Source: Deltaproteobacteria bacterium
Lineage (GTDB): Bacteria > Myxococcota_A > Polyangia > HGW-17
Direction of reading: 5' to 3'
Assembly (NCBI GenBank): GCA_016937155.1
Contig: JAFGWM010000080.1
Coordinates: 1-51,994 of the forward strand
Length of the DNA stretch: 51,994 nucleotides
Shown piece by piece: positions 192 through 11,944 of this stretch (position 1 is the first letter of the stretch; every line of letters begins with the position of its first letter). The notes under the pieces were generated by a model that saw nothing but the letters and a program-made list of their open reading frames with translations, was not told where the DNA came from and did not search any database. The translations under genes and the position numbers were made by a program.

Positions 192-450
192 TGGGTTACC
201 TCCAGTAAAAGAAATTCCCTATTAATTCTGCAATATTTACATAGATATATTTACTTTTAATCACCCTGACAAAAATAATTGAGACTATAAATATTCAAGT
301 ACATGCTGGTCTATTTCAAGTGGAGACTTTGAAAATCGGTGCTTGTGCCCGAAGGATTTTCCCGTTAGAATCTCTTGGAATTATTTTCAGGGATATTTTC
401 CCTTTTCGGACACTTTGATTAAGAACAGTAAAGGTGAGGAAAATCAAAAT

Positions 451-2148
451 ATGAATCCCAAACGTATCGTTATCATCGGCGGAAGTGCTGCTGGTCCTAA
501 AACCGCAGCCCGGGTCCGTCGTCTCGATCCGGAAGCGTATATCACAATCATAGAACGGAATCAGGACATAACAATGGCCTCCTGCGGATATCCTTACTAC
601 ATAGGTGGACTGTTTGATTCACGTGATGCACTTCTGGAAACAGCCACAGGGGTTGTACGAAACACAGGATATTTTAAAAACTACAAGGATATCGATGTTC
701 TTATTAACACTGAAGTGACCCGAATAAATCGCAGGGAGAAGAACCTTGAACTTAGTAATCTCATCACAGGAGAAAACTCTACTTTACCATATGATAAACT
801 TCTTATAGCCACTGGAAGCAAAGCAAAAATTCCACCAATTGAAGGTATTAACCTTCAGGGAATAACACCTCTTAAATTTATAAGTGATGCTGATTACCTC
901 CGGAAGGTCCGGGATAAAAAAGAAGTGAAAAAAGCTGTTATAGTTGGTGGGGGTCTCATTGGACTTGAAACTGCCGAGGCCTTACAGTTATCAGGTATAG
1001 AAGTATCAGTTGTTGAGCTCTCTGAAAGGCTGCTTCCATTTCTTGACCGGGAAGTTGCAAAATTAGTGGAGAAACATTGCCGTTCCAAGGGAGTAAATAT
1101 CCTTCTGGAAAGCGGTATTGAATACTTCATGGGACAAAACAATCAACTGACCGGGGTAAAATTAAACTCCGGTGTAGAACTTTCCTGCGAACTGGCGGTA
1201 ATTGCCATTGGAGTAACTCCAGATTCCACTCTGGCGAAAAATGCAGGGCTCAAAATAGGTGAAACCGGGGGCATAAGAGTAAATAAATTCATGGGGACTT
1301 CCGACCGAAATATCTATGCCGCAGGAGATTGCGTTGAAGTCATAAACTCAGTAAGTGGTGTATGGGACTATTCTCCCAAGGGCGATATGGCGAATCTTCA
1401 GGGACGGGTTGCCGCAGACAACATGATATTCGGTGATACAATACGCTTTCCGGGAACCATCGGTACTGCAATAGGCAAAATTTTTGATTTCTCCGCAGGA
1501 ACAGCAGGCCTGTCGGAAACTGCAGCTGAAGGAGCTGGATTCAATGTGGAAACAGTACTCAATGCAAGTACGGATAAGCCAACATTCATGGGGGCAAAAA
1601 CGCTCATTTCCAAACTCACGGTAGAGAGATCAACTCGTCGAATTTTAGGCTATCAGTGTGTCGGCAAAGGTGATGTATCAAGGCAGATTGCTCAGGGAGC
1701 ACTGGCCATAGCCGGTGAGATGACACTGGAAAATATGATGAGTCTCGATCTTCCCTACGCTCCACCATATTCCCTTGCGGTTGATCACTTCCTCGCTTCA
1801 CTTCACATGATGGATAACAAACTGAAGGGACTTTTCAGGGGTATCAGTAGCCATGAAGTTTACCAGATGCATCTTGACCGCAAAAAAGGTGTTTGTTTCC
1901 TTGATCTTCGCGAAGTTGACGAAGTCGAAACACATCGTCTGGGAATAGGTGAATTATTTATTCCACTCAGCACTTTGCGACGGCGCCTGAGGGATGTTCC
2001 TCCTCAGAAAAATACACTGATAGTATGCTATTGTCTCATGGGACCACGATCGTATGAGGCATCTCTCATTCTCAGGGCTGAAGGATATACCAATGTTAGA
2101 GTGATGGAAGGCGGGATGATGGCCTGGCCCTTCCCTCGTGAAAAATAG
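451..2148 (+). CDS. CoA-disulfide reductase / NADH oxidase-like flavoprotein with C-terminal rhodanese
   Basis: A 565-residue FAD- and NAD(P)H-dependent disulfide reductase. The ATG at 451 is chosen over the in-frame upstream start because it follows GGTGAGGA and puts the FAD motif (IVIIGGSAAG) at the N-terminus. The redox cysteine of the CoA-disulfide reductase/NADH oxidase family is present at about Cys45 in SCGYPYYIGG. A second nucleotide-binding motif (VIVGGGLIGLETAEAL) lies near residue 165, and an ATG..D FAD site (YAAGDC) near 290. The last 100 residues are a rhodanese domain with active-site Cys528 in CLMGPRS. The fusion is a known architecture that reduces CoA disulfides or persulfides. 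The gene lies 242 bp upstream of the microcompartment genes on the same strand, so a role in NADH re-oxidation or CoA redox balance for the BMC is possible but inferred. Confidence 0.85.
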   Translation: MNPKRIVIIGGSAAGPKTAARVRRLDPEAYITIIERNQDITMASCGYPYYIGGLFDSRDALLETATGVVRNTGYFKNYKDIDVLINTEVTRINRREKNLELSNLITGENSTLPYDKLLIATGSKAKIPPIEGINLQGITPLKFISDADYLRKVRDKKEVKKAVIVGGGLIGLETAEALQLSGIEVSVVELSERLLPFLDREVAKLVEKHCRSKGVNILLESGIEYFMGQNNQLTGVKLNSGVELSCELAVIAIGVTPDSTLAKNAGLKIGETGGIRVNKFMGTSDRNIYAAGDCVEVINSVSGVWDYSPKGDMANLQGRVAADNMIFGDTIRFPGTIGTAIGKIFDFSAGTAGLSETAAEGAGFNVETVLNASTDKPTFMGAKTLISKLTVERSTRRILGYQCVGKGDVSRQIAQGALAIAGEMTLENMMSLDLPYAPPYSLAVDHFLASLHMMDNKLKGLFRGISSHEVYQMHLDRKKGVCFLDLREVDEVETHRLGIGELFIPLSTLRRRLRDVPPQKNTLIVCYCLMGPRSYEASLILRAEGYTNVRVMEGGMMAWPFPREK

Positions 2149-2356: not shown

Positions 2357-2390
2357 CTTAATTCTTCCTGCAAAAGGTATGGAAATTCCA

Positions 2391-3083
2391 ATGTCCGATA
2401 ATGATATTACAGTTCCAGTAGCTCTCTCAGGCAGACATGTCCATCTGTCTCAGGAACATGTTGATGCATTGTTCGGTTCAGGGTATCAACTAAACTGGCT
2501 GAGTGATTTAAGTCAACCTGGTCAGTATGCATGCCGTGAAACTGTTGAGGTAATGGGGCCCAAGCGTTCTTTTTCCAAAGTACGTGTCCTCGGACCTGTT
2601 CGGAAAGAAACTCAGGTTGAACTGTCCACTACTGATGGAGTTATGCTGGGCATTAATTTACCTACTCGCGACAGCGGCGATATAAAGGGTACCCCCGGTG
2701 CTTATCTGATTGGTCCCCGCGGAGCCATAAAAATTCATGAGGGCTGTATTGTAGCCTCCAGACATATTCATACCACTCCTGAGGATGCACAACGTTTAGG
2801 TGTTCATGACAAGCAGAAAGTATGGGTACAAATTGAAGGTGCACGTGGTCTTATTTTCTCTGATGTCTTGATTCGTGTTTCTCCGGATTTCAAAACTGAA
2901 CTTCATCTTGATCTTGATGAAGGCAATGCCGCTTCAATACGAAACGGAGATCAGGGTCGAATCCTGTCGAATATATGCAGTGACCTTTGCCAGTTGAAAC
3001 AGTGTGGTATTTCATCAGATCTCCGACCGGGTGAAAGCCAGCCATTCTGTCAATTCACTTCTTCTGGCTGGAGTATCAGATAA
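2391..3083 (+). CDS. pduL: PduL-type phosphate acyltransferase
   Basis: Converts acyl-CoA plus phosphate to acyl phosphate plus CoA, here probably acetyl-CoA to acetyl-P, regenerating CoA for the aldehyde dehydrogenase. The PduL signature is clear: the metal-binding SGRHVHLS motif at the very start and RHIHTTPEDA with NGD..RI later, two beta-barrel repeats in all. A start at 2391 (MSDND) is preferred because the 2379 ATG sits only one base after AGG; both are possible. The protein lacks the 20-30-residue amphipathic N-terminal encapsulation peptide usual for microcompartment PduL. Instead it carries about 35 extra residues at the C-terminus, rich in Cys and Ser. Its stop is 1 bp before the next start, so the two are translationally linked. 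Confidence 0.9.
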   Translation: MSDNDITVPVALSGRHVHLSQEHVDALFGSGYQLNWLSDLSQPGQYACRETVEVMGPKRSFSKVRVLGPVRKETQVELSTTDGVMLGINLPTRDSGDIKGTPGAYLIGPRGAIKIHEGCIVASRHIHTTPEDAQRLGVHDKQKVWVQIEGARGLIFSDVLIRVSPDFKTELHLDLDEGNAASIRNGDQGRILSNICSDLCQLKQCGISSDLRPGESQPFCQFTSSGWSIR

Positions 3084-3084
3084 C

Positions 3085-3840
3085 ATGCACGATAAGGATT
3101 TCGAGCAGCTCATCCAAACTATTACTGATCTGGTTCTGGCCAAATTACAAAGCATTGAGGATCCGGCAAATCAGGCTCGTACTCTCACGGTGATATGGCC
3201 TGCTGCATCATCGGCGAAAAATAATATAATTGCCGGTATTTCTGCATTTCGTCAGGCTGGTCATAACATACAGTGGCTGATTAAAGACGATATTATGGAT
3301 GAGATAACTCCTCTTGTACCGGATAAAGAAAGATCATGCTGTCATTCCATGTCTTTGGCTCCTGTACAGACCATTCTTGGAGACATTCGTGGAAATGGTG
3401 TGGTTTTAATTGCTGCGGCTAATTTTCATGCTGCCGGACAGATACTGTCCTATAATGATGAAATTCCTTGGATTCATGTTCTTCTTCAAGCTCACCTTGC
3501 CGGACAGCAAGTATTAATATGTGATGATTTATTGTCATCTAGGGGACTGTCAGCACAAAACCCTGTGACTGAAGAAGCTCAGAAACTGAAGCGCCAACTG
3601 GAACACATGGATTTCAAACTGATTGCCTCAGGAGAAGTCAGTGGATATCTTAAAAACCTGACGCTGTCAGTAAATCATGGTTCACAAGGGGAAGGCGGGC
3701 TTTTAACAGAACGTGATGTTGAGGATATGTTCCGTGCAGGTCACAGGGAACTGCGTCTGCACGCAAAAACTCTGGTTACACCGCTTGCACACAGCAAGGC
3801 AGCTGAATTGGGGCTGAATCTTTTGCATATGCAAGTCTGA
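3085..3840 (+). CDS. BMC-associated flavoprotein-like protein with encapsulation peptide and EutQ-like C-terminal motif
   Basis: A 251-residue protein starting at ATG 3085 (MHDKDFEQLIQTITDLVLAKL), an amphipathic helix of the encapsulation-peptide type. Residues 35-190 form an alternating beta/alpha region (TVIWPAA.., VVLIAAANFHA, IPWIHVLLQAHLAGQQVLIC) resembling the flavoprotein (HFCD) fold. The last 45 residues (LTERDVEDMFRAGH..LVTPLAHSKAAELG) match the motif at the N-terminus of EutQ, where it reads roughly ..ANDI..A...G.....ITPEAREVAELLG. The middle region aligns by eye with residues 50-215 of the DERA fusion in the same locus, so the two are probably paralogous cargo domains. An ORF extension to 3004 exists but overlaps pduL and would bury the targeting helix. 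The reaction is unknown; a flavin-binding or scaffolding role is only inferred. Confidence 0.75.
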   Translation: MHDKDFEQLIQTITDLVLAKLQSIEDPANQARTLTVIWPAASSAKNNIIAGISAFRQAGHNIQWLIKDDIMDEITPLVPDKERSCCHSMSLAPVQTILGDIRGNGVVLIAAANFHAAGQILSYNDEIPWIHVLLQAHLAGQQVLICDDLLSSRGLSAQNPVTEEAQKLKRQLEHMDFKLIASGEVSGYLKNLTLSVNHGSQGEGGLLTERDVEDMFRAGHRELRLHAKTLVTPLAHSKAAELGLNLLHMQV

Positions 3841-3849
3841 GGAGAATAA

Positions 3850-4140
3850 ATGCTATTGGCACGAGTCGTCGGAAATGTGGTAAGTACTAGAAAAGCTGAG
3901 GTTATGATTGGGAGTAAACTTCTAATTATTGAACCTGTGGACTTCAAGAAACAAAAGGCTGACGGGAAGCCCCTTGTTGCGGTTGATACTGTAGGGGCTG
4001 GAATTGGTGAAATAGTTCTTGTTGTTCAGGGTTCATCAGCACGTCTCACTGAAACAACAAAGGAGCGGCCTGCTGATGCATCAATCATAGCAATTGTTGA
4101 CTATGTTGAATTCGAAGGGAAACGAACTTTTGCAAAGTAA
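3850..4140 (+). CDS. BMC-P shell pentamer (EutN/CcmL family), copy 1
   Basis: A 96-residue pentameric vertex protein that caps the icosahedral corners of the microcompartment. It shows the family start (MLLARVVGNVVSTRK), the central LLIIEPVD segment, the VAVDTVGAGIGEIVLVVQGSSAR core and the terminal AIVDYVEF strand. GAGGAG overlaps the stop of the preceding gene, giving tight coupling. It is one of three BMC-P genes in the locus, the number typical of SPU-class shells. Sequence differences between the three suggest they are not interchangeable. Confidence 0.95.
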   Translation: MLLARVVGNVVSTRKAEVMIGSKLLIIEPVDFKKQKADGKPLVAVDTVGAGIGEIVLVVQGSSARLTETTKERPADASIIAIVDYVEFEGKRTFAK

Positions 4141-4167: not shown

Positions 4168-5652
4168 ATGGCCATTCAGATAGATGAAAATCAGTTAAGT
4201 AAATTAGTTGAAGCTGTGGTTGCACAGATGACCGGAAATAATGGTGTCAACTCCCAGAATAAAATCAATTATGCCCCGGTCATACCATCGACAAACAATA
4301 CAGGGAATTCTGTGGTATCACACAGCAGGTTCTCTGAAGGAATATTTGCAACTGTGGATGAGGCTGTGGCCGCCGCAAAGAAAGCGTATAATGAGTTTTC
4401 TTCAGTACCACTGGAAAAACGCAAGGTGTTCATTAAAGCTATGCGGGAAGCAGCTGTGACCAATGCAGAGATTTTTGCCCAGGAGACGGTTACTGAAAGC
4501 GGTTTCGGTCGTGTTAGTGACAAAATACAGAAGATACTTCTGGCTGCCAACAAAACTCCCGGAACCGAAGATTTGTCTCCCCTGTGTTACACCGGGGATG
4601 ACGGACTTACCCTCGTGGAACCAGCGCCATTTGGTGTAATTGGCTCGATAACACCAGTAACCAATCCAACTCCGACAGTTATCAATAATGGTATTGGTAT
4701 GGTTGCTGCGGGTAATGCTGTAGTATTCAACCCGCATCCTAGTGCGAGGAATGTAAGTAATCATGCAGTGTCAGTTCTGAATCGAGCGATTGCAAAAGCC
4801 GGTGGACCTAAAACTCTTCTTTGCAGTATTGCTTCTCCGACTTTAGAAACTTCTGCGGCACTGATGAAGCATCCTGATATAAGAATTCTGATGGTTACCG
4901 GTGGAGGTGCAGTAGTAAAATCAGCTATGACATCCGGGAAAAGATGCATTGCAGCCGGGCCGGGAAATCCCCCCGTAATCGTTGATGACACAGCTGATGT
5001 GTCCCATGCTGCAAAGTGTATCGTTAATGGTGCGAGTTTTGATAACAACGTATTGTGTACTGCCGAAAAGGAAGTTTTTGTTTTTGACAGCATAGCTGAC
5101 AGCCTTGTATCAGAAATGCAGAAAAATGGTGCATATCTGTTAAATTCCACACAAACAGAAGCAATCACAAAGGTAATGGTAGAACCAGGAGAACCATGGC
5201 CACATCCAAATAAAAAATATGTAGGACATAATGCATCTGAACTGCTGGCTACAATTGGGATTTCCGTTTCCGATTCAGTGAGACTTGTAATCTGTGAAGT
5301 TCCTGATGACAGCCATCCTCTTGTTCAAACTGAAATGCTCATGCCAATCCTCCCCATAGTAAGGGTGCAGGACCTTAATGAAGCCCTTGACAAAGCAAAA
5401 AAAGCTGAACATTTCTTCAGGCACTCGGCCTATATGCATTCTGAAAATGTCAATAACATGTCTCTGGTGGCTCGAGCCATTGAGACCACAATCTTCGTGA
5501 AGAATGCACCTTCCTACGCCGGACTTGGCTTTGGTGGCGAAGGATTTACCACATTGTCTATTGCTGGTCCTACCGGGGAAGGTTTAACCTCAGCCCGCAC
5601 TTTTACAAGACAGCGACGATGTGTACTGGCTGGTGCATTTCGTATTGTGTAG
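4168..5652 (+). CDS. CoA-acylating aldehyde dehydrogenase, encapsulated (PduP/EutE-like)
   Basis: Oxidises an aldehyde, most likely acetaldehyde from DERA, to acyl-CoA with NAD+ and CoA inside the shell. The 494-residue protein begins with an amphipathic helix (IDENQLSKLVEAVVAQM) followed by a Ser/Asn-rich linker to residue 50, the usual encapsulation peptide. The ALDH fold follows with the nucleotide region (PFGVIGSITPVTNPTPTVINN), a GGGAVVKSAM segment and the catalytic Cys297 in NNVLCTAEKEVFV. There is no Glu base at the position used by non-acylating ALDHs, as expected for the acylating clade. Start supported by AAGGAA seven bases upstream. It lies between a BMC-P gene and the PduS-like gene. 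Confidence 0.95.
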   Translation: MAIQIDENQLSKLVEAVVAQMTGNNGVNSQNKINYAPVIPSTNNTGNSVVSHSRFSEGIFATVDEAVAAAKKAYNEFSSVPLEKRKVFIKAMREAAVTNAEIFAQETVTESGFGRVSDKIQKILLAANKTPGTEDLSPLCYTGDDGLTLVEPAPFGVIGSITPVTNPTPTVINNGIGMVAAGNAVVFNPHPSARNVSNHAVSVLNRAIAKAGGPKTLLCSIASPTLETSAALMKHPDIRILMVTGGGAVVKSAMTSGKRCIAAGPGNPPVIVDDTADVSHAAKCIVNGASFDNNVLCTAEKEVFVFDSIADSLVSEMQKNGAYLLNSTQTEAITKVMVEPGEPWPHPNKKYVGHNASELLATIGISVSDSVRLVICEVPDDSHPLVQTEMLMPILPIVRVQDLNEALDKAKKAEHFFRHSAYMHSENVNNMSLVARAIETTIFVKNAPSYAGLGFGGEGFTTLSIAGPTGEGLTSARTFTRQRRCVLAGAFRIV

Positions 5653-5677: not shown

Positions 5678-7030
5678 ATGAAAAAAGTTTCCAGGAATGA
5701 AATCCTCAAACGAATTAGTGACGCTGGTGTCGTAGGTGCCGGTGGAGCAGGTTTTCCAACTCATGTGAAATATGACGCTAAAGTTGAAGTGGTTTTAGCT
5801 AATGGCGCAGAATGTGAACCTCTGATTCGTGTAGATCGACTGACCATGCAGAATCACCCCGGAGAAATAGTGCTAGGTATGCAGTATGCTATGAAGGCAA
5901 CCGGGGCGAAGCGTGGTGTGATAGGTCTGAAAGCCAAATACAAGGATGCGGCTGCAGCACTTGAAGAACAGTTAAAATTACAGAAAGTATCTGACAGCAT
6001 ATCCCTTTTCAGGCTGGATGATTTTTTCCCGGCAGGTGATGAATTTGTGCTGGTCAGTGAGGTTCTGGGAAGAACAATACCTGAATACGGTCTGCCAAAA
6101 GATGTAGGTGTTGTGGTCAGTAATGTATCAACTTTAGTGGATGTATGTCGTGCTGTAGAGGAAAGACAGCCTGTGACCACCAGAAAAGTGACAGTTGCCG
6201 GAGAGGTTAAAAACCCTGCCAGTTTTGAGGTTCCGGTGGGAACGCCTTTTGAACTGCTTATCCGTGCAGCAGGCGATCCGATAATTGCAAACCCCAGACT
6301 TATTGTGGGTGGTCCCATGATGGGCACTCTTTCCCCTGATTTTTCTGGAGTTGTCACGAAAACCACCACCAGTCTTCTGGTACTTCCTGAAAGCAATCCG
6401 GTAATAACGCGCAGAATTACTGACAAAAAACGCCAACTTCATCTGACCCGCAGTGCATGTCTCAAATGCATGCAATGCAGCGAACTGTGTCCCCGTAACG
6501 CTCTCGGTCATAACCTGTATCCTGATCGCATTATGCGCAGTATTGCCGCTGGTGTCACTAATGATCTTCAGGCCTACACCGGAGCTTATCTGTGTTCAGA
6601 ATGTGGTCTGTGCGCAACATTTTCATGTGTAATGAATCTTGATCCTTGTGCAATAAATATTGAACTGAAAAAACTTTTGTGGGATGCAGGCATCAAACGG
6701 CCCACTGTACCAAGAGAAACACAACCAAGGGTCTTTGGCGATCTGAGGCATGTTCCCGCTAAAAGATTGATAGCCAGACTTGGGCTTATTCCATATGACG
6801 GGCCTGCTGTTCTCAATGAGTTTAAAATACCTCTCAAGTCTGTAACCATTCCTTTGGCTCAGCATATCGGTGCGCCCTCACTTCCATGTGTTGGAGCAGG
6901 AGATTCCGTAACCGAAGGACAGATAATAGGCAGCATTCCAGAAGGCAAACTTGGAGCCAACGTTCACAGCAGCGTCACTGGAAGAGTGATGGAAGTATCT
7001 GCTAATGCAGTTACAATTGAATTAATATAA
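5678..7030 (+). CDS. pduS: PduS/RnfC-like NADH-oxidising flavo-iron-sulfur protein
   Basis: A 450-residue member of the PduS/RnfC group. The N-terminus has the glycine-rich GVVGAGGAGFPTHVKY nucleotide/FMN motif and NGAECEPL, followed by an SLBB-type segment near residues 165-210. Two ferredoxin-like clusters follow: CLKCMQC-SELCP (Cys261, 264, 267, 271) and CSECGLC-ATFSC (Cys306, 309, 312, 317). The C-terminal barrel-sandwich-like domain (VGAGDSVTEGQIIGSIPEGKLGANVHSS) ends the protein. In the Pdu system PduS is a cobalamin reductase that partners the Fe-S shell protein PduT. No B12-dependent dehydratase is encoded here, so NADH oxidation with electron transfer through the adjacent PduT-like shell protein is the more likely role; this is an inference. 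Confidence 0.9.
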   Translation: MKKVSRNEILKRISDAGVVGAGGAGFPTHVKYDAKVEVVLANGAECEPLIRVDRLTMQNHPGEIVLGMQYAMKATGAKRGVIGLKAKYKDAAAALEEQLKLQKVSDSISLFRLDDFFPAGDEFVLVSEVLGRTIPEYGLPKDVGVVVSNVSTLVDVCRAVEERQPVTTRKVTVAGEVKNPASFEVPVGTPFELLIRAAGDPIIANPRLIVGGPMMGTLSPDFSGVVTKTTTSLLVLPESNPVITRRITDKKRQLHLTRSACLKCMQCSELCPRNALGHNLYPDRIMRSIAAGVTNDLQAYTGAYLCSECGLCATFSCVMNLDPCAINIELKKLLWDAGIKRPTVPRETQPRVFGDLRHVPAKRLIARLGLIPYDGPAVLNEFKIPLKSVTIPLAQHIGAPSLPCVGAGDSVTEGQIIGSIPEGKLGANVHSSVTGRVMEVSANAVTIELI

Positions 7031-7040
7031 GGAGTCTCAC

Positions 7041-7646
7041 TTGGATAGCATGAATCACCCCGATCCTACCACCGAATCCGCCAGAGTGCGGCAGGTTTAT
7101 CCCCAGGCGGTGGGCTGTGTAGAGACAAGCAGCATTGCCCGTGGCCTTGAGTCAGCAGATGCCATGCTGAAAGCAGCTCAAGTAACCCTTTTGACGGCGA
7201 GCCCCGTGTGTCCGGGGAAATATATAGTACTTGTAGGGGGCCATGTAGCTGAGGTTACAGCTGCTGTATCCGCCGGAGAAGCTGTGGCAGCTGATACTCT
7301 GGTTGACAGACTGGTAATCCCGAATATTCATCCCCAGGTACTGAAAGCATTCACTGCTACAACAGATCCTGGGGACATAAAGGCTTTAGGTATGATTGAA
7401 ACCTTTTCTGTTGCCGCTGCAATTATCGCAGGAGACGAGGCAGTTAAAGCGGCTAATGTGAATCTGCTTGAAATCCGTCTTGCACGCGCCATGGGAGGAA
7501 AGGCTTTCACTCTGCTTACAGGTGAAGTAAGTGCAGTTAGAGCTGCTACCGAGGCAGGAATGCGCGCAGCACGTGCTCAGGGTGTTCTTTTGGGATTCAC
7601 TATCATCCCTTCACCCCATCCGGATCTTATTCCGAGTCTGGTGTAA
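7041..7646 (+). CDS. pduT: Tandem BMC-T shell trimer, PduT-like, with Fe-S-type pore cysteine
   Basis: Two fused BMC domains in 201 residues: AVGCVETSSIARGLESADAMLKAA near residue 24 and ALGMIETFSVAAAIIAGDEAVKAA near 115. Cys57 in SPVCPGKYIVLVGG matches the PduT cysteine (ICPGKF) that holds a [4Fe-4S] cluster on the trimer axis. The start is TTG 7041, with GGAG six bases upstream; the ATG at 7050 has poor spacing. About 20 residues precede the first domain. Its position directly after the pduS-like gene, 10 bp away, supports a PduS-PduT electron conduit across the shell. Confidence 0.93.
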   Translation: MDSMNHPDPTTESARVRQVYPQAVGCVETSSIARGLESADAMLKAAQVTLLTASPVCPGKYIVLVGGHVAEVTAAVSAGEAVAADTLVDRLVIPNIHPQVLKAFTATTDPGDIKALGMIETFSVAAAIIAGDEAVKAANVNLLEIRLARAMGGKAFTLLTGEVSAVRAATEAGMRAARAQGVLLGFTIIPSPHPDLIPSLV

Positions 7647-7648
7647 TT

Positions 7649-7960
7649 ATGAAAATTGCTCGTGTCATTGGCTCAGTGGTAACCACCGTTAAGCTGGACT
7701 GTCTGAATGGGTTTAAATTGTTATGGGTTGAACCTGTTGATGAAAATGGCAATCGGACTGAGCCGGCAATTCTCGCCGTTGATATGGCACAGGCGGGAAC
7801 AGGAAATATCGTGCTTTTGTGTCAGGAGGGAAAAAGTTCCCGACTGGTAATGAACAGTAAGGATGCTCCCGTTGAAGCATTGATAGTCGGTGTGATTGAT
7901 TCAGTTGAATTTTATGACCGCCAGACTTCCCTTTTAAATAAGGATAAGGGGGTACAGTGA
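7649..7960 (+). CDS. BMC-P shell pentamer, copy 2
   Basis: A 103-residue pentamer protein with the family pattern MKIARVIGSVVTTVKLDCLNG.., LLWVEPVD, AVDMAQAGTGNIVLLCQEGKSSR and VGVIDSVEF. It starts 2 bp after the BMC-T stop without a strong ribosome site of its own, so it is probably translationally coupled. Its last four bases (GTGA) overlap the GTG start of the triose-phosphate isomerase gene. Confidence 0.95.
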   Translation: MKIARVIGSVVTTVKLDCLNGFKLLWVEPVDENGNRTEPAILAVDMAQAGTGNIVLLCQEGKSSRLVMNSKDAPVEALIVGVIDSVEFYDRQTSLLNKDKGVQ

Positions 7961-8868
7961 ACGATCTTCGAAAAGTAATAGAACAACTGGTTAGACAGAC
8001 ATTGCTGGAGATGAATCATTCAGAAACAGACCTGAAACCCATGGTTCATGCAGGGACTTCCCTGAACACCGCTCATCATTACGGTAAGAGGCAACCACTG
8101 GTGGCTGCGAACTGGAAGATGAATCAACTGTCGGGAACAGCTCGCTCCTTCATGAGTGATTTTCAGTTGAGGGATCGTAAAAACATACAGACATTAATCT
8201 GCGCGCCACATATTCTGCTGCCGGTTTTAGCCGCAGGAAAAAATCAGCCCGATCTGATGCTTGGTGCCCAGAATTTTTACCCGGAACAATCCGGAGCCTT
8301 CACCGGTGAACACAATCTTGACATGTTGTCTGATGCGGGTGTTCAATCTGTGATTATTGGTCACTCTGAACGCCGCAATCTGTTTGGCGAAGGCGATGAA
8401 CTTCTTGCTAAAAAACTTGCAATGGCGGTGGAGAACAAATTTCTCCCTATATTCTGCATCGGGGAAACTCTAAAAGAGAGACAGGATGGTGCTACCTTCC
8501 GCGTGCTCCGCAACCAGTTGCTGACCGGGTTGTCCAGCCTCAAGAATCCATTACCGAATCCAGAGATGATCGTTGTAGCATACGAACCAATATGGGCAAT
8601 AGGAAGTGGTCTTACAGCAACTGCTGACCAGGCACAGGAGGCAGTTTCCTTTGTTCGTGAAAGACTAGCTGACAGATTCTCGTACTCTTATGCAAACTCT
8701 ATACGTATACTCTATGGCGGTTCGGTTAATGAAAAAAATGCATCAACACTGGCTGCTAAACCAGATATTGACGGATTTCTTGTGGGTAATGCCAGCCTTG
8801 ATGCCAACAAGTTCAGTTCCATTATAGAGCAGACCGCAGCATGTAAACGTAAGGTTTTTGTATCGTGA
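7957..8868 (+). CDS. tpiA: Triose-phosphate isomerase with N-terminal encapsulation peptide
   Basis: Interconverts glyceraldehyde-3-P and dihydroxyacetone-P. The TIM barrel is complete, with catalytic Lys54 (NWKMN), His136 (IIGHSERR), Glu210 (YEPIWAIGSG) and the phosphate-gripping YGGSVN near the end. At 303 residues it is about 50 longer than a housekeeping TIM. The surplus is an N-terminal amphipathic helix (LRKVIEQLVRQTLLEM) plus a His/Thr/Ser linker, like the targeting tags of the aldehyde dehydrogenase and DERA. GTG start overlaps the preceding stop. Retaining this enzyme inside the shell would drain the glyceraldehyde-3-P released by DERA and pull an otherwise unfavourable cleavage forward; that role is inferred. 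Confidence 0.93.
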   Translation: MNDLRKVIEQLVRQTLLEMNHSETDLKPMVHAGTSLNTAHHYGKRQPLVAANWKMNQLSGTARSFMSDFQLRDRKNIQTLICAPHILLPVLAAGKNQPDLMLGAQNFYPEQSGAFTGEHNLDMLSDAGVQSVIIGHSERRNLFGEGDELLAKKLAMAVENKFLPIFCIGETLKERQDGATFRVLRNQLLTGLSSLKNPLPNPEMIVVAYEPIWAIGSGLTATADQAQEAVSFVRERLADRFSYSYANSIRILYGGSVNEKNASTLAAKPDIDGFLVGNASLDANKFSSIIEQTAACKRKVFVS

Positions 8869-8876
8869 GGGATAAC

Positions 8877-9359
8877 ATGAACGAAACTGGAATTAAAATT
8901 TATCTGGGAGCGGATCATGGCGGGTTTGAAATGAAAAACCAGCTCAAAACTCATCTTCTGGAAAAAGGTTACGACGTATCTGATTTCGGCACTCACTCCA
9001 AAGATGCAGTGGATTTCCCCGACTATGCTTTTTTAGTAACTCAGGCTGTTTCGGGTAACCATGCGGGAGGAGGGAGAGCTGTTGGTATTATTATCGACAG
9101 TATTGGTCAGGGTAGCGCAGTGGTCGCAAATAAGGTAAAAGGCATCCGAGCTGTTGTAGCAATGGATGCTTTTTCTGTAAAATCCAGTCGTGAACACACA
9201 AACGCCAATGTGTTATGCCTTGGAGGTGCCTGGCTCGGAATGGGACTGGCCAAAGATCTTGTGGATATATGGCTGAATACCCCATATGCCGGAGGACGTC
9301 ATCAACGGCGACTGGACAAGATTACTCAGATCGAAAACCAGACGATGAGGGTGGTTTGA
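8877..9359 (+). CDS. rpiB: RpiB/LacA-family sugar-phosphate isomerase with altered active site
   Basis: A 160-residue RpiB-fold protein: YLGADHGGFEMKNQLK at the start, SREHTNANVLCLGG near residue 103, and a terminal RHQRRLDKI. ATG 8877 is preferred because GAGGGA lies just upstream; the GTG at 8865 is the alternative. The segment that in classical ribose-5-P isomerase B reads (V/I)CGTGIGMS here reads IIDSIGQGSAVVANK, so the catalytic cysteine position is Asp74. I recall similar Asp-containing variants in other BMC loci, but the substrate is not established. It has no targeting helix. It sits between TIM and the third BMC-P gene. Confidence 0.85.
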   Translation: MNETGIKIYLGADHGGFEMKNQLKTHLLEKGYDVSDFGTHSKDAVDFPDYAFLVTQAVSGNHAGGGRAVGIIIDSIGQGSAVVANKVKGIRAVVAMDAFSVKSSREHTNANVLCLGGAWLGMGLAKDLVDIWLNTPYAGGRHQRRLDKITQIENQTMRVV

Positions 9360-9360
9360 A

Positions 9361-9657
9361 ATGATTATAGGACGTGTCATAGGACAGGTGAATGCCACTG
9401 TTAAGGACGAGAGTCTGACAGGCTATCGAATGTACATTGTACAGGGACTTGATGAGAAGTTACAGCCCAAGGGGAAACCGTTTGTAGCCCTTGACGGAAT
9501 TGCCTGTGCAGGACAGGGAGATATCGTAACCCTCACTACAAAACGTGATGCGGCAATTGCACTGGGGGATATACCTCCCATAGATGCATGTATTATTGGA
9601 TTTCTTGATGTATCAACTGTTTCTGAAAATGGAATTACAAATAATTATAAACAATAA
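9361..9657 (+). CDS. BMC-P shell pentamer, copy 3
   Basis: A 98-residue EutN/CcmL-family vertex protein: MIIGRVIGQVNATVKDESLTG, YIVQGLDEK, VALDGIACAGQGDIVTLTTKRDAA and IIGFLDVS. It is the most divergent of the three copies, with a longer hydrophilic tail. GAGGGTGG lies at the end of the preceding gene. It directly precedes the two BMC-H genes. Confidence 0.95.
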   Translation: MIIGRVIGQVNATVKDESLTGYRMYIVQGLDEKLQPKGKPFVALDGIACAGQGDIVTLTTKRDAAIALGDIPPIDACIIGFLDVSTVSENGITNNYKQ

Positions 9658-9671
9658 TTTAGGAGGTCATT

Positions 9672-9956
9672 ATGAACAATAAAGAAGCATTGGGAATGAT
9701 TGAAACAATGGGTATGGTAGGCGCAGTGGAAGCAGCTGACGCAATGGTGAAGTCAGCCCGTGTGACACTGATTGGAAAAGAGCGTGTCGGTGGTGGCTAT
9801 GTGACGGTTATGGTTCGCGGGGACGTTGGTGCTGTAAAGGCTGCTATTGAAGCAGGTAGTGTTGCCGCTAAAAAAGTGGGTCAACTGGTATCTATGCATG
9901 TTATTCCGCGTCCTGACGATCAGGTGGAAGGTATTCTTCCCAAAATCCCAAAGTAA
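9672..9956 (+). CDS. BMC-H shell hexamer, copy 1
   Basis: A 94-residue canonical hexamer protein that forms the facets: [26 protein letters not shown], then [23 protein letters not shown] and [16 protein letters not shown] perfect AGGAGG ribosome site seven bases upstream suggests high expression. It differs from the second copy at only about nine internal residues. Confidence 0.97.
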
Positions 9957-9992
9957 ATTTTATAATGTTTTGATGGACGCTGATGTTGAAAA

Positions 9993-10007
9993 GGCATATT
10001 ATATGCC
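9993..10007 (+). other. Hairpin between the two BMC-H genes
   Basis: GGCATA, loop TTA, TATGCC: a perfect 6-bp stem in the 92-bp gap between the paired shell genes. There is no U-tract, so it is not a simple terminator. It could act in mRNA processing or set the ratio of the two BMC-H products. Confidence 0.35.
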
Positions 10008-10048
10008 CGACACACGGCGTGGTCGTCAACTATAACTTGGAGGTTATT

Positions 10049-10330
10049 ATGGATTTAAAAGAAGCATTAGGAATGATTGAAACAATGGGTATGGTGGGCG
10101 CTATCGAAGCTGCTGATGCAATGGTGAAATCAGCTAGAGTTACTCTCGTAGGTAAAGAGCTTGTTGGCGGTGGTTATGTGACAGTTATGGTTCGTGGAGA
10201 CGTTGGTGCTGTGAAAGCTGCTATTGAAGCAGGTAGTGTTGCCGCTAAAAAAGTAGGTCAACTGGTATCTGTACATGTTATTCCGCGTCCTGACGATCAG
10301 GTGGAAGGTATTCTTCCTAAGATTGGTTAA
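10049..10330 (+). CDS. BMC-H shell hexamer, copy 2
   Basis: A 93-residue hexamer protein nearly identical to copy 1. The ATG at 10049 (MDLKEALGM) is chosen because TTGGAGGT lies just upstream and it matches the paralogue's start; an ORF extension to 9983 is not supported. The 3' half is almost base-for-base identical to copy 1, while the 5' half carries many synonymous differences, a mosaic that suggests gene conversion. The last gene before the terminator. Confidence 0.97.
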
Positions 10331-10471: not shown

Positions 10472-11944
10472 ATGGACAACAAAGATTTGGTAGCCATAAT
10501 CACGTCTGAAGTTATGAAAAGGCTTCAACTGGACTCGGTGTCCCAAAAACAAAATATGTCAGTGACACCATCACGAAATTTTCAACAGCCAAATATTGAC
10601 GCAACTGTTCGAAGAAATTCACCCGGTGGAGTGCTGGTAATTCTAACCGGAGCAAACCGGAATACTGATCATGTAGTTAGTCAGGTTGGAAAAATTGCTG
10701 AGTGCACAAATGTTCTTAAAATTGCGTTTTCCGGCTCTGCACAGAATATTATCGGTCTTCCTGCCATCAGACGTGTAGCACCCGGAGCCCAACTTTTTAC
10801 AGATGGTGATGTTTGGAAAATACTGGAAGATGTTGATACTGTCTGTCTTCCGGCCATGTCCCCTAACCTGTTGTCAAAGCTCGTGTATTTTCAGGCTGAT
10901 GCATGGATTCCGATTCTTGCACTTTCCGGCATGACCAAGGGCCTCAGAGTGCTTGGTTGCGCTGACTCCATGCTCCCATACGAAATCAATTCAGACAGGG
11001 TTCCAGCGTCAATAAAGTCAAGACTTGATAATCTGGTCTCAATGGCAACTGAAATGGGTGTTGAATTCTGTCAGGTTGAAGAACTTGTTGATCGTGTTTG
11101 TTCCGGCACTCAACGCATCCCCGGAGCTACATCCCTAATTTCAGGCTGCAATGCACAAAATGGCGGTGAGTGCAATGCATGCGGACTATGTGTTGATTAT
11201 CGTAAGGATGATGTCTCAAAGATGGTTTCTTCCGGAGCCGGGCGTGTGGCATCTGCAGTGGGAACTCCAGTATCACTGGAGCTTGCACCCTATATTGATC
11301 ATACTCTTCTCAAGCCTGATGCAACAGAAGCTCAGATCAGAACCCTTTGTGAAGAAGCACGCCAGTATTCATTTGCTTCTGTCTGCATAAATCCGTCATG
11401 GGTAAGCCTTGCGGCATCAATGCTCAAAGGTAGTGTGGTAAAAGTATGCACCGTTATAGGTTTTCCTCTGGGAGCTACAACCAGCACGTCCAAAGCGATA
11501 GAAACCCGGGATGCCATAGCCAATGGAGCCGATGAAATCGATATGGTTATCAATGTCGGCGCTCTCAAGTCAGGCAATGATGCTCTTGTGAAGGATGATA
11601 TTGAGGCTGTTGTTGCAGCTGCAAAAGGCCGGGCAATTGTTAAAGTTATTCTTGAAACCGCCCTCCTTACCAGAGAAGAAAAAGTCAAGGCATGTCTGCT
11701 GTCGAAAATGGCCGGGGCTGATTTTGTAAAAACATCCACTGGTTTTGTACCTGGGGGAGCAACTGTTGAGGATATCGCTCTAATGCGGGAAACCGTTGGT
11801 CCTGATATGGGAGTCAAGGCTTCCGGTGGAATCAGAGACACAAAAACTGCCAATGACATGGTTGCAGCCGGGGCTACTCGTCTGGGCGCATCTGCCAGTG
11901 TTGCTATTGTCAGCGGTTCTGCAGCTTCCGGTAGCGGATATTGA
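10472..11944 (+). CDS. deoC: Deoxyribose-phosphate aldolase fused to encapsulation helix, flavoprotein-like domain and Cys4 motif
   Basis: Cleaves 2-deoxyribose-5-P to acetaldehyde and glyceraldehyde-3-P. The DERA barrel occupies residues 270-485 with Asp357 (IDMVINVG), Schiff-base Lys420 (VKTSTGF) and Lys449 (VKASGG) all present. The protein is 490 residues, about twice a standard DeoC. Residues 1-20 are an amphipathic targeting helix ([17 protein letters not shown]). Residues 50-215 resemble the flavoprotein-like region of the 3085-3840 protein. A cysteine cluster C-x7-C-x2-C-x2-C (Cys226, 234, 237, 240) precedes the aldolase and could bind Fe-S or zinc. AAGGA precedes the start. It lies 96 bp after a terminator and so may be separately controlled. 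Its product acetaldehyde feeds the aldehyde dehydrogenase. Confidence 0.93.

What the first reader, a model, noticed from the sequence alone, without database searches (positions are those of the whole stretch)
5678..7646. Likely electron conduit made of PduS-like protein and PduT-like shell trimer
The genes are adjacent. PduS has two cluster motifs plus an NADH/FMN motif, and the shell trimer has the PduT-type cysteine (Cys57, CPGKY). In a locus without a B12 enzyme this pair would serve redox export instead of cobalamin reduction.
Basis: partly seen in the sequence, partly recalled or inferred. Interest (0 to 1): 0.6.

Follow-up and report, generated by a model that had tools for sequence, protein, structure and literature searches.

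The report
PduS–PduT electron conduit in SPU microcompartment
This myxobacterial relative carries genes for a protein-shelled compartment that probably breaks down DNA sugar, and two neighbouring genes in it probably carry surplus electrons out through the shell; such pairs have been proposed before, but here relatives show that the two genes travel together and that the shell protein has its iron-sulphur cysteine only when its partner is present.

Summary
5678-7030 encodes a PduS-type NADH/FMN/2x[4Fe-4S] protein and 7041-7646 a PduT-type shell trimer with the cluster cysteine (Cys57, CPGKY). They sit in a complete SPU (sugar-phosphate-utilising) microcompartment operon: PduL, unknown protein, BMC-P, AldDH, PduS, BMC-T, BMC-P, TIM, RpiB, BMC-P, two BMC-H, DeoC. 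The host is a Myxococcota bacterium. No ethanolamine lyase or diol dehydratase is found in the genome (about 95% complete), and the locus has no alcohol dehydrogenase. New evidence from Myxococcota relatives: every BMC-T beside a canonical PduS has the cysteine (32 distinct pairs), none of 67 other BMC-Ts does, and 23 of 23 genomes with both kinds obey the rule. In 20 loci the pair stands alone as a two-gene satellite. Its presence is not associated with EutB. The cysteine BMC-Ts fit one clade, so this is one origin with long conservation, not repeated convergence. Best explanation: PduS reoxidises AldDH-made NADH inside and passes electrons through the BMC-T cluster to the cytosol. Direction and cytosolic acceptor are unproven. 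The idea is published for PDU, GRM and EUT compartments, and PduS in SPU loci was noted in 2014: a new member of a known kind.

The parts
343..2148 (+). Pyridine-nucleotide-disulphide oxidoreductase with C-terminal rhodanese domain (CoA-disulphide-reductase-like); co-directional, kept in the same-genus relative, membership of the operon unsure
2379..3083 (+). PduL phosphate acyltransferase (PTAC); would recycle CoA
3079..3840 (+). Unknown protein with encapsulation-peptide-like N-terminus; no Pfam hit; low-confidence Rossmann-like model
3850..4140 (+). BMC-P (EutN/CcmL) pentamer
4168..5652 (+). CoA-acylating aldehyde dehydrogenase (PduP/EutE type) with N-terminal encapsulation-peptide-like helix; expected source of NADH in the lumen
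5678..7030 (+). PduS: NADH/FMN domain, SLBB, two [4Fe-4S] motifs, C-terminal RnfC_N domain; no encapsulation peptide
7041..7646 (+). PduT-like BMC-T shell trimer with cluster cysteine Cys57 (Cys54 if the ATG at 7050 is the start)
7209..7211 (+). Codon (TGT) of Cys57, the PduT Cys38 equivalent, predicted [4Fe-4S] ligand at the pore
7649..7960 (+). BMC-P pentamer (EutN/CcmL type)
7957..8868 (+). Triosephosphate isomerase with encapsulation-peptide-like N-terminus
8865..9359 (+). RpiB ribose-5-phosphate isomerase
9361..9657 (+). BMC-P pentamer (assigned by sequence likeness and by its counterparts in related loci; not scanned against Pfam itself)
9672..9956 (+). BMC-H hexamer
9983..10330 (+). BMC-H hexamer
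10472..11944 (+). DeoC deoxyribose-phosphate aldolase fused to an encapsulation-peptide-like helix, an N-terminal domain and a four-cysteine linker (C226, C234, C237, C240)

Best explanation
The pair is a trans-shell electron conduit of an SPU microcompartment. [quoted passage not shown] AldDH oxidises acetaldehyde to acetyl-CoA and makes NADH, and PduL recycles CoA. No alcohol dehydrogenase is encoded in the locus to recycle NAD+. PduS, docked inside on the BMC-T, oxidises NADH through FMN and its two [4Fe-4S] clusters and hands single electrons to a [4Fe-4S] cluster held by three Cys57 residues on the BMC-T three-fold axis, from which a cytosolic acceptor takes them. Shown here: the genes, the motifs, the linkage of PduS with the cysteine, and the absence of the usual B12 and alcohol-dehydrogenase partners. 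Known for homologues: PduS cofactors and NADH oxidation, PduS-PduT binding, the PduT cluster. Inferred: flow in this organism, its direction and the acceptor.
For: PduS and PduT anatomy and BMC-T fold (model pLDDT 86, TM 0.92-0.93 to 3nwg and 3pac). Locus has AldDH and PduL; Fe-ADH, GRE, PduC and PduO were not detected in it or in 88 related stretches. Cysteine/PduS rule: 32 of 32 canonical pairs against 0 of 67 other BMC-Ts, and 23 of 23 genomes with both. Gene order is PduS then BMC-T on the same strand in every pair measured. In 20 loci the pair stands alone, with no other recurrent neighbour except ribosomal-protein genes; 19 of those 20 genomes have a BMC AldDH elsewhere. No EutB in the genome and no association of the pair with EutB (20/30 against 73/120, p=0.68). 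PduC in none of 379 genomes (control). Strong purifying selection on PduS and BMC-T, pS 0.68-0.80 against pN 0.07-0.17. Published potentials run downhill: NADH -320 mV, PduS flavin -150 mV, PduT cluster +99 mV; PduS co-purifies with PduT (PMC2982820, PMC6325248).
Against: No biochemical data on this protein pair. The cysteine BMC-Ts are consistent with one clade, so the rule is one origin kept for a long time and the Fisher p-value overstates independence. The +99 mV cluster potential is for Citrobacter PduT, and an engineered BMC-T cluster sat at -370 mV, so the direction here cannot be read from sequence. Many Myxococcota BMC loci have AldDH, no alcohol dehydrogenase and no PduS pair, so other ways of handling NADH exist. 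Two Fe-ADHs are encoded elsewhere and could in principle be encapsulated. The cytosolic acceptor is unknown.
Confidence: 0.65

Rival explanations
1. PduS is a corrin reductase here too, supporting a B12-dependent enzyme encoded elsewhere, as proposed for PDU compartments.
For: PduS from Citrobacter binds and reduces cobalamin in vitro (PMC2982820). The genome has an adenosyltransferase away from the locus. 20 of 30 pair-bearing genomes also have EutB.
Against: No EutB or PduC in the genome and no PduO-type gene in the locus. The EutB rate is the same in BMC genomes without the pair (73/120, p=0.68). Corrin reduction does not explain why only PduS-linked BMC-Ts carry a cluster cysteine.
Confidence: 0.08
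2. Electrons flow inward: the pair brings reductant from the cytosol into the lumen, for example to reduce acetaldehyde or to feed a lumenal iron-sulphur site such as the four-cysteine linker of DeoC. Axen 2014 suggested PduS might make alcohol from aldehyde in SPU loci.
For: The DeoC linker has four invariant cysteines. The lumenal or cytosolic side of PduS is not established for this organism. The Axen 2014 proposal is.
Against: Published potentials favour NADH to PduT flow. No reductase for acetaldehyde is encoded in the locus. Nothing shows that the DeoC cysteines bind a redox cluster rather than zinc.
Confidence: 0.12
3. The pair is an evolutionary leftover of a PDU-type ancestor with no present redox role.
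For: Axen 2014 lists this possibility for SPU loci. The BMC-T groups with Salmonella PduT in the tree.
Against: All eight PduS cluster cysteines and Cys57 are invariant among diverged homologues, selection is strongly purifying, and the two genes persist alone as satellites in 20 loci.
Confidence: 0.05
4. The cluster on the BMC-T is mainly structural, or a sensor that opens or closes the pore, and PduS sets its redox state rather than exporting bulk electrons.
For: The cluster would plug the three-fold pore in place of the Ser, Thr, Gln or Glu that other BMC-Ts have there. The published PduT structures leave the function open (own knowledge; the open question is stated in PMC6325248).
Against: No sequence evidence for gating, and the fixed pairing with an NADH-oxidising flavoprotein is more than a sensor needs (inference).
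Confidence: 0.1

Closest known systems
PduS/PduT of the PDU microcompartment (Citrobacter, Salmonella)
   Same: Same gene order, domains, eight cluster cysteines and CPGK cysteine; PduT 40-43% identical.
   Different: No diol dehydratase, PduO, PduQ or PduW in this locus. The NCBIfam PduT equivalog model scores 128.6 against a cut-off of 250.3, so it is PduT-like and not that equivalog.
SPU microcompartment loci, above all the Atribacteria SPU with PduS and TIM (Axen 2014, PMC4207490; Sutter 2021, PMC8217296)
   Same: DeoC, RpiB, AldDH, PduL, TIM, PduS, no alcohol dehydrogenase.
   Different: Myxococcota host. Assignment to one of the seven SPU subtypes was not done.
GRM1b/GRM5 and Bilophila isethionate compartments with PduS/PduT (PMC6325248, PMC8667426)
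   Same: PduS/PduT pair without a B12 enzyme; export proposed. Bilophila also lacks an alcohol dehydrogenase in the cluster.
   Different: The signature enzyme here is an aldolase and not a glycyl radical enzyme, so activation of such an enzyme cannot be the reason for PduS here.
BMC-T of Desulfitobacterium hafniense, 3nwg
   Same: Closest solved structure, 52% identity, carries PVCPGKY.
   Different: No function assigned in the entry.
RnfC of Rnf complexes
   Same: Same set of domains; the genome has a separate true RnfC at C76.
   Different: In RnfC the barrel-sandwich domain is N-terminal; here it is C-terminal, as in PduS. No other Rnf subunits in the locus.

Membership tests
PduS | Complex1_51K, SLBB, Fer4_17, then C-terminal RnfC_N | tested here: met
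PduS | GxGGxGFP motif and two four-cysteine motifs | tested here: met
PduS | NADH oxidation, FMN and two [4Fe-4S] clusters, cobalamin reduction | not testable with these tools
   known only for Citrobacter/Salmonella PduS
PduT (BMC-T with pore cluster) | Two BMC domains, BMC-T fold | tested here: met
PduT (BMC-T with pore cluster) | Cysteine at the Cys38 position | tested here: met
PduT (BMC-T with pore cluster) | NCBIfam TIGR02526 equivalog cut-off | tested here: not met
   128.6 bits against 250.3; called PduT-like
PduT (BMC-T with pore cluster) | [4Fe-4S] cluster at the three-fold axis | not testable with these tools
   monomer model only; needs EPR or a structure
SPU microcompartment | DeoC (PF01791) and RpiB (PF02502) with shell genes | tested here: met
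SPU microcompartment | AldDH related to acetaldehyde-processing types | tested here: inconclusive
   PduP/EutE-type by model; branch on the AldDH tree not determined
PDU microcompartment | B12-dependent diol dehydratase (PduC) | tested here: not met
   absent in the genome; control rings in a pdu plasmid
EUT microcompartment | EutB | tested here: not met
   absent in the genome; E. coli control rings
GRM microcompartment | Glycyl radical enzyme in the locus | tested here: not met
   no PflB-like ORF in the searched stretches; rest of genome not searched
RnfC | N-terminal RnfC_N domain, Rnf operon | tested here: not met
   domain is C-terminal; separate true RnfC in the genome

The most novel reading that the evidence does not exclude
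PduS plus a cysteine BMC-T is a self-contained, cargo-independent redox plug-in: two genes that Myxococcota add, often as a distant satellite, to shells built by another locus (including Haliangium-like shells whose own BMC-T has Ser, Thr, His, Gln or Glu at that place), giving any aldehyde-oxidising compartment an electron outlet without an alcohol dehydrogenase.
Probability: 0.45. Interest if true: 0.6.

Novelty: new member of a known kind. Interest (0 to 1): 0.42.

Why it matters
How metabolosomes without an alcohol dehydrogenase recycle NAD+ is an open question. The rule found here (a cluster cysteine only next to PduS, both genes alone in satellites, no tie to EutB) argues that PduS/PduT is a redox unit and not a B12 accessory, and it names proteins on which this can be tested, including an SPU pair and genomes that hold a cysteine and a non-cysteine BMC-T side by side.

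Tried and rejected
DeoC as a bait for SPU loci across the phylum mostly returned housekeeping DeoC. The one genome-contig scan used patterns from the AldDH N-terminus and found only four close loci, so no survey outside Myxococcota was possible; the ADH/PduS trade-off across all SPU types is untested. The first EutB reference was read in the wrong frame, so the EutB scores are void; corrected. A structure of the unknown protein gave a poor model and no reliable match. The search for a conserved acceptor gene beside satellites gave only overlapping reading frames and ribosomal-protein genes. No RNA family, and no excess of promoter- or terminator-like sites, in the region. dN/dS ratios could mostly not be given because synonymous sites are saturated.

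Full report
Observation. The window is one whole contig (G000:C44) of a 4.1-Mb draft genome, about 95% complete. ORF 5678-7030 has Complex1_51K, SLBB, Fer4_17 and a C-terminal RnfC_N domain, the motif GAGGAGFP and two four-cysteine motifs. ORF 7041-7646 has two BMC domains, is 40-52% identical to PduT and to the D. hafniense BMC-T 3nwg, and carries CPGKY at the PduT Cys38 place. Cys57 counts from a TTG with a well-placed AGGAG; the ATG at 7050 kept in relatives would make it Cys54.

Surroundings. The operon reads PduL, unknown protein, BMC-P, AldDH, PduS, BMC-T, BMC-P, TIM, RpiB, BMC-P, BMC-H, BMC-H, DeoC, and is the same in G303 and, with small changes, in three further named Myxococcota or Deltaproteobacteria MAG loci. 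DeoC plus RpiB plus shell genes marks the SPU type, for which DNA-sugar breakdown is the published proposal (PMC8217296). Axen 2014 already reported PduS in the Atribacteria SPU loci, TIM in one of them, and the missing alcohol dehydrogenase (PMC4207490). AldDH, TIM, DeoC and the unknown protein start with helices like encapsulation peptides; PduS starts directly with its flavin domain (sequence), which fits docking through the shell protein, as shown for PduS and PduT of Citrobacter (PMC2982820).

B12. EutB is absent in the genome, with the E. coli control ringing. PduC is absent in the genome and in all 379 phylum genomes sampled, and the same model rings in a Salmonella pdu plasmid. An adenosyltransferase lies elsewhere. 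Across 150 genomes with BMC AldDH or BMC-T hits, the pair is not associated with EutB: 20 of 30 with the pair against 73 of 120 without, p=0.68. This counts genomes and ignores relatedness.

The PduS/cysteine rule. 80 regions around BMC-T and AldDH hits, four named loci, a few regions fetched earlier and 15 further main loci were annotated with window, Salmonella and E. coli reference proteins. BMC-T rows next to a canonical PduS all have cysteine: 32 rows, of which L045 and L086 are the same contig, so 31 distinct; G203 is added because a PduS fragment lies just beyond its BMC-T at the contig end, giving 32. L113 has cysteine but ends at a contig edge and is unresolved. BMC-Ts without a neighbouring PduS have Ser, Thr, His, Gln, Glu, Asp, Met or Ala and never cysteine: 52 and 15 (the Fisher test was run with 50). 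23 genomes carry both kinds and all follow the rule. The one exception is L140, where a divergent PduS-like protein without the GxGGxGFP motif sits beside a Ser BMC-T. The tree is compatible with a single origin of the cysteine group (one change, support 43/95). The rule is therefore conservation of a linked pair over long divergence and not repeated gain, and the p-value should not be taken at face value.

Satellites. In 20 loci (17 of them on stretches of 11 kb or more) PduS and BMC-T are the only shell-associated genes found, always in that order on one strand; one of them, L103, has an acetate-kinase-like gene about 3 kb away. There is no other recurrent neighbour than ribosomal-protein genes. 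19 of the 20 genomes have a BMC AldDH elsewhere. 12 pairs lie with DeoC-containing or SPU loci, as here. I did not find this two-gene satellite described in the passages of Axen 2014 and Sutter 2021 that I read, and I could not read their supplementary locus tables, so I do not claim it as new.

Mechanism. AldDH needs NAD+, and none of the 89 stretches, the window among them, contains an Fe-ADH; two Fe-ADHs are encoded elsewhere in the genome. PduS of Citrobacter oxidises NADH, holds FMN and two [4Fe-4S] clusters, and binds PduT (PMC2982820). Published potentials (-320, -150, +99 mV) allow flow from NADH to the shell cluster (PMC6325248). Export is therefore the most likely role. Direction and acceptor stay inferred; the genome holds a true RnfC and several NuoF-like flavoproteins that could act downstream, without evidence that they do.

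Selection. Between the window and L045 or L087, synonymous differences are near saturation (0.68-0.80 for PduS and BMC-T) while nonsynonymous differences are 0.07-0.17, so the pair is not decaying.

Verdict. Real, correctly read, sensible interpretation, published idea. Worth a test because relatives supply natural cysteine and non-cysteine BMC-Ts in one cell.

Noticed in passing
window 11147-11191 (DeoC linker, C226/C234/C237/C240): The SPU DeoC has a four-cysteine linker ([15 protein letters not shown]) before the aldolase domain, invariant in five aligned relatives and echoed by other cysteine-rich linkers in more distant Myxococcota DeoC fusions. Zinc or iron-sulphur site; function unknown.
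   Followed up: partly
window 3079-3840: Conserved 251-aa protein with encapsulation-peptide-like start and no Pfam or NCBIfam family; low-confidence Rossmann-like model.
   Followed up: partly
L140 8245-9654 and 9449 onward: Divergent PduS-like protein that keeps the eight cluster cysteines but lacks the GxGGxGFP motif, next to a Ser BMC-T in a main BMC locus; the same genome has a canonical pair elsewhere (L121).
   Followed up: partly
L095, L106, L109, L117 and others: PduS/BMC-T satellites lie next to ribosomal-protein genes in about six genomes.
   Followed up: no
window 343-2148: FAD/NAD-dependent disulphide reductase with a rhodanese domain upstream of PduL, kept in the same-genus relative but not seen upstream in L088.
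   Followed up: partly
G000:C76, C57, C14: Genome encodes a true RnfC and several NuoF-like flavoproteins of about 600-670 aa, suggesting an anaerobic, perhaps electron-bifurcating metabolism.
   Followed up: no
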